From Rhodospirillales bacterium (lineage in GTDB: Bacteria; Pseudomonadota; Alphaproteobacteria; ATCC43930; CGMCC-115725), in NCBI GenBank assembly GCA_947473305.1, contig CANJCB010000006.1:62001-126000 (forward strand): 64,000 bases of DNA, read 5' to 3'. The translations under genes were made by a program, and so were the position numbers. The notes under the pieces were generated by a model. That model was not told the DNA's origin. It saw nothing but the letters and a program-made list of their open reading frames with translations, and did not search any database. This document shows positions 1 through 64,000 of the stretch, in pieces. The number at the start of each line of letters is the position of its first letter. Position 1 is the stretch's first letter.

Positions 1-781
1 GGCTCAGGAGCAGGGCGGCGTCCTCGGCATAGGGGCTGTCCGCCGGGACGTCGCGGACCAGTTCCTTGGCGATGACGGCGATGGTGGCGAGCGGGCTGCC
101 GAGCTCATGGGCGGCGGCGGCGGCGAGGCCGCCCACGGCCGAGACCCGCTGCTCCCGGGCGAGCGCCAGCTGCGTCGCGGCGAAGGCATCGCGCATCCGG
201 CGGGCTTCCTCGGCCACGATCCAGGCATAGCCCGCCATGAAGAGGGCGGAGGAGACCAATGCCGTCCAGACCCCCAGAATATAGGGGAAGGGGAAGTCCG
301 GCGGGGGGCCGGGCCAGGGCAAGGGCTGGTGGAGCACGATCAGGATGCTTGCCGCCGCCACCGTCAGCGCGCAAAGCCCGATGATGCTGCGCAAGGACAG
401 GATGGTCGCCGCCACCGAGACCGGCGCCAGCATGAGAAGGGCGAAGGGATTGACGATCCCGCCGGTCAGGAAAAGCAGCAATCCCAGTTGCAGGATGTCG
501 TAGCCGAGATAGAAGGCGGCTTCGCGCTCGCCCAGCCGCGCCCGCGTCGGACGGGGCAATCCCACCACGATATTGACCAGGGCCGAAGCGGCCACCACCG
601 CGAGCGCCAATCCGATCGGCAGGTTATAGCCCAAGCCGAAGTGGACGATGAGCAGGGTCGCCGCCTGGCCGGTCACGCCGATCCAGCGGATCAGCACGAG
701 CATCCGCAGGCTGACCGAGACTGCTCGCCCCGATTTTCGTGTCCCGGCTTTGGCCGCCGGGATTGAACTTGCCTCCTCCAT
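1..781 (-). CDS. regB: RegB/PrrB/ActS-type redox sensor histidine kinase (3' end cut by window)
   Basis: Global redox sensor kinase of the inner membrane. It senses the quinone pool and phosphorylates a RegA/ActR-type regulator. Translating from the ATG at 779-781 gives about 260 codons with no stop before the window edge. A series of hydrophobic segments fills roughly residues 25-190. The quinone-binding heptapeptide GGxxNPF is present as GGIVNPF at residues 107-113. The H-box reads AAAAAHELGSPLATI, with the phospho-acceptor His at residue 225, the same number as in Rhodobacter RegB. The redox-active Cys and the ATPase domain would lie beyond the window start. It is divergent from the ABC exporter. 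No regA is visible here; SenC, often its neighbour in Rhodobacter, is about 8 kb away at 8714. Confidence 0.9.
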   Translation of the reverse strand, partial: MEEASSIPAAKAGTRKSGRAVSVSLRMLVLIRWIGVTGQAATLLIVHFGLGYNLPIGLALAVVAASALVNIVVGLPRPTRARLGEREAAFYLGYDILQLGLLLFLTGGIVNPFALLMLAPVSVAATILSLRSIIGLCALTVAAASILIVLHQPLPWPGPPPDFPFPYILGVWTALVSSALFMAGYAWIVAEEARRMRDAFAATQLALAREQRVSAVGGLAAAAAHELGSPLATIAVIAKELVRDVPADSPYAEDAALLLS

Positions 782-840
782 TGGGCGCCCCTTCCGGGTC
801 TGATTATAGACTACTGTGATCCGGCTGGAAGAAGTGCCGT

Positions 841-60536: not shown

Positions 60537-61744
60537 ACCCGGTGGAGCGGATCGTCCTTCAGCCCTGGATGGAGGAGCCGCCGACCCGCAAGGTGATGGC
60601 GGCGCTGCGGGCGGCGGGGTCGCCCGCCCGTTTCGTCGGCGGTTCCGTGAGAGACGCGCTCCTCGGGCGGCCTGTGCTGGATATCGATATCGCAACGCCT
60701 GAGCCGCCCGACCGGGTTATGGCTCTCCTGGCCGCCGCCGGCATCAAGACGGTGCCTACGGGGCTGGCCCATGGCACGGTGACGGCGGTGGTTAAGCCCC
60801 GCCATTTCGAGGTCACGACGCTCCGCCGTGATGTCGAGACCGACGGGCGTCACGCGACGGTCGCTTTCACCGACGATTGGGCGGCGGACGCTTCGCGCCG
60901 GGATTTCACGATGAACGCCCTGTTTCTCGATAGCGAGGGGCGGATTTACGATCCCTTGGGCGGATTGCCTGACCTGCGGGCCGGATATGTCCGCTTCGTG
61001 GGGGATCCCGCGTCCCGGATCCGCGAAGACGTGTTGCGGATCCTGCGGTTCTACCGGTTCCTCGCCCGATACGGGAAAGGTGAGCCCGACCGGGCGGCGC
61101 GCGCCGCCTGCCGCGCGCTTGCCAATCTGCTGCCGACCCTGTCGGCGGAGAGGGTCGCGACGGAATTCCTCAAACTCCTCGGCGTCCCGGATCCGTTGCC
61201 GGTGCTGGGGATCATGGCCGAGGATGGCGTGTTGCCGATCCTGCTGCCCGAGGCGACCAACTTGCCTCGCCTGGCGGCGCTCCTTCCGCTGGAACCGGAG
61301 GCGGATCCCCTACGACGCCTCGGCGCCCTGCTTCGCGGCGACGGCGAGGCGGTGGGGCGCCGTCTCAAGCTATCCAACGACCAGGTGGACAGGCTTGCAG
61401 CGCTCAGCGATCCGCCCTGGCCGGTTGATCCCGTTGGGGATGCCTCCGCCCAGCGCAGGGCGCTTCATCATCTAGGACCGCAGCGCTATGGGGATCTGCT
61501 GCTCTTGCGTATCTCGGAAACCGGAGAAAAGGGCCGGCTGGAGTCGCTGTTCGCGGCGGCGGGCGCCTGGAAACCCCGGGTCTTTCCTCTGCGCGGGGCA
61601 GATTTGTTGGAAGCTGGACTTCCGCCTGGGCCGGAGATGGGGGGGCTGCTTGCGGCTATCGAGGCCTGGTGGGAGGAGAACGATTTTCAGCCGGATCGGG
61701 CGGCCTGCCTCGCCCGGCTGGCGGAAATCCAGGGCCAGGCCTAG
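60533..61744 (+). CDS. cca: CCA tRNA nucleotidyltransferase
   Basis: 403-aa class II enzyme that adds or repairs the CCA end of tRNA. The head domain has [35 protein letters not shown], with the GGSVRD flexible loop and catalytic Dx[56 protein letters not shown] includes RRDFTMN, and [37 protein letters not shown] is the neck. It starts at ATG 60533, overlapping the preceding stop. The TAG stop overlaps the TAG stop of hemF by 4 nt (CTAG shared by both strands). Confidence 0.95.
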
Positions 61745-62592
61745 GGCCAGGCCACTTCCGGCGGCAGCGACATCAGGATCGCCTCGACATTGCCGCCGGT
61801 CTTGAGGCCGAAGAGCGTGCCCCGGTCGTAGAGCAGGTTGAATTCCACATAGCGGCCGCGCCGGACGAGCTGATGCTGACGCTCCTCCAGCGTCCAGGGC
61901 TCGTACATATGCCGCCGCACCAGCGCCGGATAAGTCGCGAGGAAAGTCTCGCCCACGTCGCGGGTGAAGGCGAAGTCCTTCTCCCAGTCGGCTTCCAGGT
62001 AGTCGTAGAAAATTCCGCCGACGCCGCGCGGCTCGTTGCGGTGCTTCAGGTGGAAATAATCGTCGCACCATTTCTTGAATTTCGAGTGGTAGGCGGGATC
62101 GTGGCGGTCGCAGGCCGCCTTCAGCGCGCCATGGAAAGCGTCGGTGTCCGCCTGATCGGGAACCATCGGTGTCAGATCCGCCCCACCGCCGAACCAGGCC
62201 TTGGTCGTCTGGATATGCCGGGTGTTCATATGGACCGCCGGCACCTTGGGCGAGCGCAGATGCGCCACCAGCGAGATCCCGCTGGCCCAGAAGCGGGGGT
62301 CCTCCGAGGCGCCAGGGATCTGCCCGCGAAAATCGGGGGAGAATTCGCCTTCCACGGTCGAGACGTTGACGCCGACCTTCTCGAAGACCCGGCCCCGCAT
62401 CAGGGACATGACCCCGCCGCCGCCTTCCGGCCGGTCCCAGGCCTTGCGCTCGAAACGGCCGGCGGACCCTTCCTCCGGGCGCGCGGCGGCATAGTCCTGC
62501 TCGATCTTCTCGAAGGTGGCGCAGATCCGGTCGCGCAGGGCCTCGAACCAGGCTCGGGCGGCTGCCTTGTGCTGGATCGCCTCGTCGCTCAT
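61741..62592 (-). CDS. hemF: Oxygen-dependent coproporphyrinogen-III oxidase
   Basis: Aerobic heme-synthesis enzyme, 283 aa. Landmarks: [42 protein letters not shown], then [59 protein letters not shown], and [43 protein letters not shown]. The ending [39 protein letters not shown] matches the usual tail. Convergent with cca (4-nt overlap) and 4 nt overlap with trmL upstream. Being oxygen dependent, it marks an aerobic heme pathway next to petAB. Confidence 0.97.
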
Positions 62593-63056
62593 GTCTTCGC
62601 TCCACCCATTCCCGGCAAAAGTCCCGTCTGACGCAAGGCCTCGCCCAAAACGATCGCCGCTGCAAGCGCGACGTTGAGAGATCGCCGGCCGGCCATCAGG
62701 GGTATCGCCAGACGCGCGTCCGCCGATTGATGCACATCAAGCGGAACGCCCGCCGATTCGCGGCCCAGAAGCAAGGTGTCCTCGGGCTGGAATGAAAAAT
62801 GATGATAGGCGGCGTCGCCTTTTGTCGTGAGCAGGAGCAGGCGGCCCTTCCGTGCTTTGAGATAAGCGTCCCAGGAGGCGTGCCTCACGAGGTCGAGCCC
62901 TTCGAGGTAATCCATGCCCGTCCGCCGCAGTCGCCGGTCGCTCAAGACGAAGCCCAGAGGCTCGATCACGTCGACGCCCACGCCCAGGCAAGCGCCCAGC
63001 CGCATCAACGCGCCGGCGTTCTGGGGAATATCGGGTTCATAGAGGGCAAGGCGCAT
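62589..63056 (-). CDS. trmL: tRNA (cytidine(34)-2'-O)-methyltransferase
   Basis: SPOUT-class methyltransferase, 155 aa from ATG 63056 ([52 protein letters not shown]). The C-terminal knot is [16 protein letters not shown]...[28 protein letters not shown]. TrmL/YibK methylates the wobble base of tRNA-Leu. The stop overlaps the hemF start by 4 nt (ATGA). A start six codons upstream (63074) is possible but non-standard. It is divergent from petA, about 206 nt away. Confidence 0.94.
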
Positions 63057-63169
63057 GGTGCGACGCGAGAGCATCTTTTCAAGCGGGAGGCGAATGGATT
63101 ATACCCGTCGCGGCTTACCGGTACCGGCTTTTATTTCCCGGTGTTTTCGGCTGTCCCGCTAGGATTTAT

Positions 63170-63184
63170 GCGGCAGGATGTCGC
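63170..63184. promoter_or_regulatory. Near-consensus RegA/RegR-type box upstream of petA
   Basis: GCGGCAGGATGTCGC on the plus strand; GCGACATCCTGCCGC on the minus strand. The pattern GCGNC-N5-GNCGC is matched perfectly. On the minus strand it agrees with the published RegR-type box GNG(A/G)C(A/G)TTNNGNCGC at 14 of 15 positions (one T to C). It lies 79 nt upstream of the petA ATG, within a slightly longer TATGCG...CGCATA inverted repeat. RegA controls petABC in Rhodobacter, and a RegB gene is present at the left of the window. Binding is inferred. Confidence 0.55.
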
Positions 63185-63262
63185 ATAGCGGGGATCGTTC
63201 AACAGTATAGCTTGCGCGCCAGCGGGGTCCCCGCCGGGAGCGGGCGGACGAGGGGTGTTTCA

Positions 63263-63799
63263 ATGGCGGATTCGACGCATGACGGGCACGCGAGCCGTCG
63301 CGATTTCCTGACGCTGACGGCGTCGGCAATCGGCGGCGTGGGCGCAGCCGCTGCGGTTTGGCCTTTGATCAGCAGCATGAACCCGGCCAAGGACACCTTG
63401 GCGCTGTCGACCACCGAGGTCGATGTGGCGTCGGTCCAGGTCGGGCAGCGGCTGACCGTCACCTGGCGCGGCCATCCGGTTTTCATCGACCACCGCCCCG
63501 CCGAAGAGGTCAAGGCGGCGCAGGAGGTCGATATCTCGAGCCTTCCCGATCCGCAGACCGACCAGTCCCGGGTCAAGAAACCCGAATGGCTCATTGTGGT
63601 CGGCGTTTGCACGCATCTGGGCTGCATCCCCCTGGGACAGAAGGGCACCGACGTGCGCGGCGAATTCGGCGGCTGGTTCTGCCCCTGCCACGGCTCGCAA
63701 TACGATACTTCGGGTCGCATCCGGAAGGGTCCGGCGCCCAAGAACCTCGAAGTTCCGCCCTACGCCTTCACGGGCGACACCAAAATCCTCATCGGTTAG
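63263..63799 (+). CDS. petA: Ubiquinol-cytochrome c reductase iron-sulfur (Rieske) subunit
   Basis: 178 aa from ATG 63263 ([40 protein letters not shown]). The N-terminal RRDFLTLTA is a twin-arginine signal that also serves as the membrane anchor (residues about 15-37). The Rieske 2Fe-2S ligands are CTHLGC and CPCHGSQYD. It is part of the cytochrome bc1 complex, moving electrons from ubiquinol to cytochrome c. It precedes petB by 12 nt. The RegA-type box lies 79 nt upstream. An in-frame start 17 codons earlier is possible. Confidence 0.97.
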
Positions 63800-63811: not shown

Positions 63812-64000
63812 ATGACTGCCCCCGCCTCACAGAACAGGCTCGTGCGCTGGATTGACCATCGCCTGCCGATCTTCACCTTCATCAATCACGAACTGCACGA
63901 ATACCCGACCCCGAAGAACTTGAACTACTGGTGGAACTTCGGGTCGCTCGCCGGGATCATGCTCGTGATCATGATCGCCACCGGCATTGTGCTCGCGATG
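63812..64000 (+). CDS. petB: Cytochrome b of the bc1 complex (5' part, cut by window end)
   Basis: The first 63 codons are present, from ATG 63812: [64 protein letters not shown] followed by the first transmembrane helix is the N-terminal signature of cytochrome b. It forms the di-heme membrane core of the bc1 complex. petA-petB spacing is 12 nt, so the standard petABC operon continues beyond the window. Confidence 0.96.

What the first reader, a model, noticed from the sequence alone, without database searches (positions are those of the whole stretch)
63170..63184. RegA/RegR-type box before petA, with regB at the other end of the window
The motif GCGNC-N5-GNCGC is exact and lies 79 nt upstream of petA. 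RegB at 1-781 keeps GGxxNPF and His225. The co-occurrence suggests that redox control of the bc1 operon, known in Rhodobacter, holds in this lineage.
Basis: partly seen in the sequence, partly recalled or inferred. Interest (0 to 1): 0.55.

Follow-up and report, generated by a model that had tools for sequence, protein, structure and literature searches.

The report
Conserved RegA-type site before petA
A short mirror-image DNA site just before the cytochrome bc1 genes is kept in the same place across many alphaproteobacteria that carry the RegB/RegA redox-sensing pair and is mostly missing where RegA is missing, so redox control of this respiratory complex is probably old and widespread.

Summary
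The 15-mer GCGGCAGGATGTCGC is at 63170-63184, 79 nt before the petA ATG (63263), in the trmL-hemF/petABC divergent gap. As a pattern it means nothing: 12 hits in the window against 12.3 expected, 658 in the genome against 741 for the reversed control. Comparison of orthologous promoters rescues it. In a class-wide sample, 47 of 98 genomes with RegA carry the box in the 350 nt before petA, against 5 of 48 without RegA; shuffles expect 3.4. With at most one mismatch to GCGNC-N4-TGNCGC it is 72 of 98 against 5 of 48, the latter at shuffle level. An unbiased dyad scan ranks TGCG-N6-TGTC first (38 of 98, expected 0.25). The site fits the published RegA and PrrA consensuses in full, the RegR one not. 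The genome has a RegB-RegA operon with GGIVNPF, His225 and Cys265; its RegA DNA-binding region nearly equals that of PrrA. In relatives a TATAGCTT -10 lies at fixed distance, centring the box near -42. Best reading: a RegA activator site of the bc1 operon, conserved across much of the class. Binding is not shown.

The parts
63170..63184 (+). RegA-type box GCGGC-N5-GTCGC
   Evidence: conserved in orthologous petA promoters
63169..63185 (+). Extended palindrome TGCGGCA-N3-TGTCGCA; full match to PrrA consensus YSCGGC(5)GWCRMA (only such match in the window, expected 1.04); its inner 15 bases match the R. capsulatus RegA motif SSGNVRDNHYSNCSS
   Evidence: consensuses as quoted in PMC5506826; flanking T in 27 of 28 and A in 24 of 28 aligned sites
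63206..63213 (+). TATAGCTT, probable -10 element at fixed distance from the box in relatives
   Evidence: alignment of 28 sites; outside the own order TANNNT at box+38 in 7 of 38, next best position 2; no consensus sigma-70 promoter found
63263..63799 (+). petA, Rieske iron-sulfur subunit of cytochrome bc1
63813..64000 (+). petB, cytochrome b (runs out of the window; cytochrome c1 follows in L002:4035-4805)
62589..63074 (-). trmL-type tRNA methyltransferase, divergent from petA (start perhaps at 63056; TrmL equivalog score 127 is below its cut-off 190)
   Evidence: in 93 of 104 relatives' petA regions
61741..62592 (-). hemF, oxygen-dependent coproporphyrinogen oxidase, behind trmL
2..781 (-). 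regB (5' part), ActS/PrrB/RegB histidine kinase; regA follows outside the window

Best explanation
The box is an operator for the response regulator RegA in the petABC promoter. RegB (quinone motif GGxxNPF, redox Cys265, phosphorylated His225) senses the redox state of the respiratory chain and phosphorylates RegA. A RegA dimer binds the two half-sites GCGGC and GTCGC, centred about 42 bases before the inferred start and next to the -35 region, and activates transcription of the bc1 genes from a promoter that lacks a good -35 hexamer. Shown here: the site, its conservation with fixed spacing and orientation, its association with RegA, the RegB-RegA operon and the near-identity of RegA's DNA-binding region to PrrA's. 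Inferred: binding, dimer, activation rather than repression, the signal and the start site.
For: RegB and RegA pass the equivalog cut-offs NF033792 (518.9, cut-off 350) and NF033791 (300.1, cut-off 250); GGIVNPF, His225, Cys265 present. The DNA-binding region aligns without gaps to the PrrA effector domain 1umq, differing at one residue (N to K) within RNVSETARRLxMHRRTLQRIL. Site matches RegA and PrrA consensuses fully. Relatives: 30 of 104, shuffles 2.3. Class-wide: 47 of 98 RegA genomes against 5 of 48 (Fisher p 6e-6); form with T before the proximal half-site 43 of 98 against 2 of 48 (p 2.6e-7), 30 of 59 families against 2 of 36; RegA still adds with GC and genome size as covariates (likelihood ratio p 0.002). 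One of those 2 RegA-minus genomes, G060, has a RegA of 249.3 bits, just under the cut-off of 250. In families f28 and f86 the members without RegA also lack the box. Control promoter groES, in genomes mostly chosen for a petA box: 1 of 30. Box also in 8 of 25 RegA-genome regions without divergent trmL, so it goes with petA. RegA binds the bc1 promoter in R. capsulatus (passage), PrrA directly controls fbcFBC in R. sphaeroides (passage), RegA strongly induces bc1 in Brucella suis (passage).
Against: No footprint, gel shift or expression data. About half of RegA genomes (51 of 98) lack an exact box and 26 of 98 lack even a one-mismatch T-type box. In nine further RegA genomes with divergent petA, including f23, 5 have a box and 3 the T-type. 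RegA-minus genomes are smaller and lower in GC, so another regulator lost with genome reduction could give part of the association; only one RegA-minus genome exceeds 4 Mb. Genome-wide neither the loose box nor the PrrA consensus is in excess (658 against 741; 64 against 75). The RegR consensus is not met: GG stands where TT is required.
Confidence: 0.8

Rival explanations
1. A different regulator, lost together with RegA in reduced genomes, binds this palindrome.
For: RegA-minus genomes are smaller and lower in GC; the box recurs little elsewhere in the own genome, 10 strict palindromes mostly in open frames, odd for a global regulator.
Against: Full match to two published RegA/PrrA consensuses; association survives covariates (p 0.002) and the 3-4 Mb stratum gives 7 of 25 against 0 of 13; RegA/PrrA known at bc1 promoters.
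Confidence: 0.13
2. The conservation reflects a promoter core element (an extended -35) or a shared trmL/petA constraint, not an operator.
For: The proximal half TGTCGC lies near the -35 position relative to the conserved -10.
Against: Conservation covers a 17-base palindrome with both halves, spacing 5 only; at shuffle level in RegA-minus genomes, which also need the promoter; kept in 8 of 25 regions without trmL.
Confidence: 0.05
3. Chance match in a GC-rich genome.
For: Pattern at background in window and genome.
Against: Orthologous promoters: 30 of 104 against 2.3, 47 of 99 regions against 3.4, top-ranked dyad.
Confidence: 0.02

Closest known systems
RegA sites of Rhodobacter capsulatus (ChIP-seq motif SSGNVRDNHYSNCSS)
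   Same: Full 15-base match; RegA binds the bc1 promoter there (passages)
   Different: A distant lineage, in the order of Stella; regB and regA adjacent on one strand here
PrrA sites of R. sphaeroides (YSCGGC(5)GWCRMA)
   Same: Full 17-base match; fbcFBC is a direct PrrA target (passages)
   Different: PrrA/RegA sites are described as a degenerate repeat with spacer of varying length; here spacing 5 dominates
RegR box of Bradyrhizobium (GNGRCRTTNNGNCGC)
   Same: Same half-sites and spacing
   Different: TT at positions 7-8 not present
Brucella suis RegA control of bc1 (PMC5435760)
   Same: RegA-dependent bc1 genes (passage)
   Different: Sites predicted there with spacers 0-10; no class-wide comparison in the passages seen

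Membership tests
RegB/PrrB/ActS kinase | Equivalog model NF033792 over cut-off | tested here: met
   518.9 against 350
RegB/PrrB/ActS kinase | GGxxNPF, phosphorylated His (225) and redox Cys (265); functions and R. capsulatus numbering partly recalled | tested here: met
   GGIVNPF at 107, His225, Cys265
RegA/PrrA/ActR regulator | Equivalog model NF033791 over cut-off, with receiver and Fis-type HTH | tested here: met
   300.1 against 250; PF00072, PF02954; near-identity to 1umq
RegA/PrrA binding site | Match to R. capsulatus and R. sphaeroides consensuses | tested here: met
   both full
RegR box | Match to GNGRCRTTNNGNCGC | tested here: not met
   no match in the gap
RegA/PrrA binding site | Conserved in orthologous promoters and tied to presence of RegA | tested here: met
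RegA/PrrA binding site | Bound by RegA and needed for regulation | not testable with these tools
   needs footprint and reporter

The most novel reading that the evidence does not exclude
RegA control of the bc1 operon through one fixed operator, TGCGGCA-N3-TGTCGCA placed like a class II activator site, is ancestral to much of the Alphaproteobacteria and is the steadiest target of a regulon otherwise described as differing markedly between species; it would have been in place before the families split.
Probability: 0.45. Interest if true: 0.65.

Novelty: new member of a known kind. Interest (0 to 1): 0.5.

Why it matters
RegA sites are described as degenerate, with no strong motif found for PrrA by ChIP-seq and only nine of 61 RegA sites shared between two Rhodobacter species. 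A sharply defined, position-fixed site before petA in 33 of 59 families with RegA gives a testable reference operator and suggests that setting bc1 levels is a core job of RegB/RegA, beyond its known role in phototrophs. The searches made here (open-licence papers only, listings and passages read) showed no report of this conservation.

Tried and rejected
The loose 15-mer and the PrrA consensus as genome-wide predictors: no excess over controls; a half-strict form GCGNCRNNNYGNCGC gives 248 against 162, not followed by gene. The PrrA consensus hits were only counted, not placed by gene. GCGRCANNNTGYCGC gives 10 hits against 0 for the reversed control, but most lie in open frames, so no regulon was read from it. 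ccoN promoters: 11 of 30 in 450 nt, other spacings 1 to 7; weak, not claimed. A class-wide alignment of 47 sites shows no conserved -10 column; the -10 claim rests on the own order and relatives and a modest peak elsewhere. The sharing of a window by regB and petA was rejected as evidence. Rfam: no match. The regB/ABC-transporter gap (window 782-840) was looked at by eye only.

Rows dropped: 110 loci gave 104 distinct regions (6 duplicates). Of 159 class genomes with petA, 146 were used; the 13 beyond the listing were looked at later with 3 others: of the genomes new there, RegA-plus 5 of 9 with a box, RegA-minus 0 of 5. L281 and L282 were fetched but not used, as their genomes are not in the class sample. 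RegA presence was tested for 50 of the 80 named loci.

Full report
The site. GCGGCAGGATGTCGC is at 63170-63184. The gap in which it lies separates petA-petB-petC (plus strand) from a TrmL-type methyltransferase gene and hemF (minus strand). The genome is an alphaproteobacterium in the order of Stella: G038, 'same order', has the contig length and petA coordinates of AP019702.1, Stella vacuolata.

Chance. The ten-base pattern is at background: 12 in the window against 12.33 plus or minus 3.49 and 658 in the genome against 741 for the pattern read backwards. The stricter PrrA consensus has one hit in the window, this one, but 1.04 is expected, and 64 genome hits against 75. So the single sequence proves nothing.

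The regulator. The full regB (L001:5453-6781) and the following regA (L001:4881-5516) overlap slightly as open frames on one strand and pass NCBI's equivalog cut-offs. RegB has GGIVNPF at 107-113, His225 and Cys265; that these are the quinone, phosphorylation and redox residues with the same numbers in R. capsulatus is partly recalled. RegA's DNA-binding region aligns to the PrrA effector domain 1umq with one change in the HTH stretch RNVSETARRL-x-MHRRTLQRIL.

Relatives. 110 petA loci gave 104 distinct upstream gaps, 93 with divergent trmL. 30 of 104 hold the box; 300 shuffles give a mean of 2.3 (maximum 7), the reversed pattern 0, and other half-site spacings 1-7. Twenty-eight aligned sites show T-GCGGCA-GNN-TGTCGC-A with TATAGCTT beginning 36 bases after the box start. 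With a start about 7 bases past the -10 (general knowledge) the palindrome centres near -42. No consensus sigma-70 promoter is found, as expected for an activator-dependent promoter. Of 50 named loci tested for RegA, 13 of 19 genomes over the cut-off have the box, 0 of 3 with sub-threshold matches, and 2 of 28 without a match: L003, which appears to be the genome G030 of 79% completeness, and L038, whose box lacks the T.

Class-wide test. The class sample had 193 genomes of at least 95% completeness; 159 have petA at 1e-40 and 107 RegA over cut-off. Upstream regions of 146 genomes were read. Box in 350 nt: 47 of 98 RegA genomes, 5 of 48 others (Fisher p 6e-6). Shuffles: 3.4 and 0.98 expected. 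By spacing, 5 gives 47 RegA-genome regions, the next best 14. The form GCGNC-N4-TGNCGC, either strand: 43 of 98 against 2 of 48; 30 of 59 against 2 of 36 families. One of the two RegA-minus cases has a RegA at 249.3 bits under a cut-off of 250. Best-match counts on the forward strand: RegA genomes 41 with no and 31 with one mismatch (shuffles 0.6 and 12.2); RegA-minus 2 and 3 (shuffles 0.1 and 3.4). An unbiased scan of 4+4 dyads puts TGCG-N6-TGTC first in RegA genomes (38 of 98, expected 0.25); it is not among the top 20 in the others. Other high dyads there seem to come from trmL coding sequence (my reading of the sequence).

Confounders. RegA-minus genomes are lower in GC (0.47 against 0.56 in the upstream regions) and smaller. 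Logistic regression with both as covariates leaves RegA significant (chi-square 9.5, p 0.002), and at 3-4 Mb it is 7 of 25 against 0 of 13; above 4 Mb there is only one RegA-minus genome. Families with both states that I looked at: f28 and f86 lose both together; f101 has no T-type box in either member; in f22 both members have the box, one with RegA just under the cut-off. Genomes in a family are not independent, and no tree-based test was made.

Controls. groES promoters, in genomes mostly chosen for their petA box: 1 of 30. ccoN: 11 of 30 in 450 nt, hardly above other spacings. T-type box without divergent trmL: 8 of 25 RegA-genome regions.

Literature. Passages only: PMC5506826 for the three consensuses and for failure to find a motif in Acidithiobacillus; PMC5359404 for RegA at the bc1 promoter and the limited overlap between species; PMC4263372 for fbcFBC as a direct PrrA target and no strong motif; PMC5435760 for bc1 induction by RegA in Brucella; PMC5643017 for bc1 expression staying static between growth modes in R. 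capsulatus, a caution that control may balance rather than switch. Also searched within: PMC4064962, PMC4634722, PMC4344238, PMC4999443.

Verdict. It is a new member of a known kind; the breadth and fixed geometry are what is new.

Noticed in passing
L002:6051-8969 (own genome, C6:129050-131968, beyond the window): Coenzyme F420 genes cofC, cofD, cofE and an npdG-type F420 reductase shortly behind petABC in an alphaproteobacterium; all four pass curated cut-offs.
   Followed up: partly
window 61741-63262: The box lies between bc1 and a trmL-hemF pair, so one operator might also touch haem synthesis; trmL is divergent in 93 of 104 relatives. No test of an effect on hemF was made.
   Followed up: partly
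L119 (own genome, C11:92483-92497): Another strict palindrome, GCGACACCATGCCGC, in a gap between a macrodomain-like gene and a decarboxylase-like gene (names from reading the sequence).
   Followed up: no
genomes G114, G116, G184, G221: Some genomes carry two good petA copies; in G116 one copy has the box and the other not, which would allow a test within one cell.
   Followed up: no
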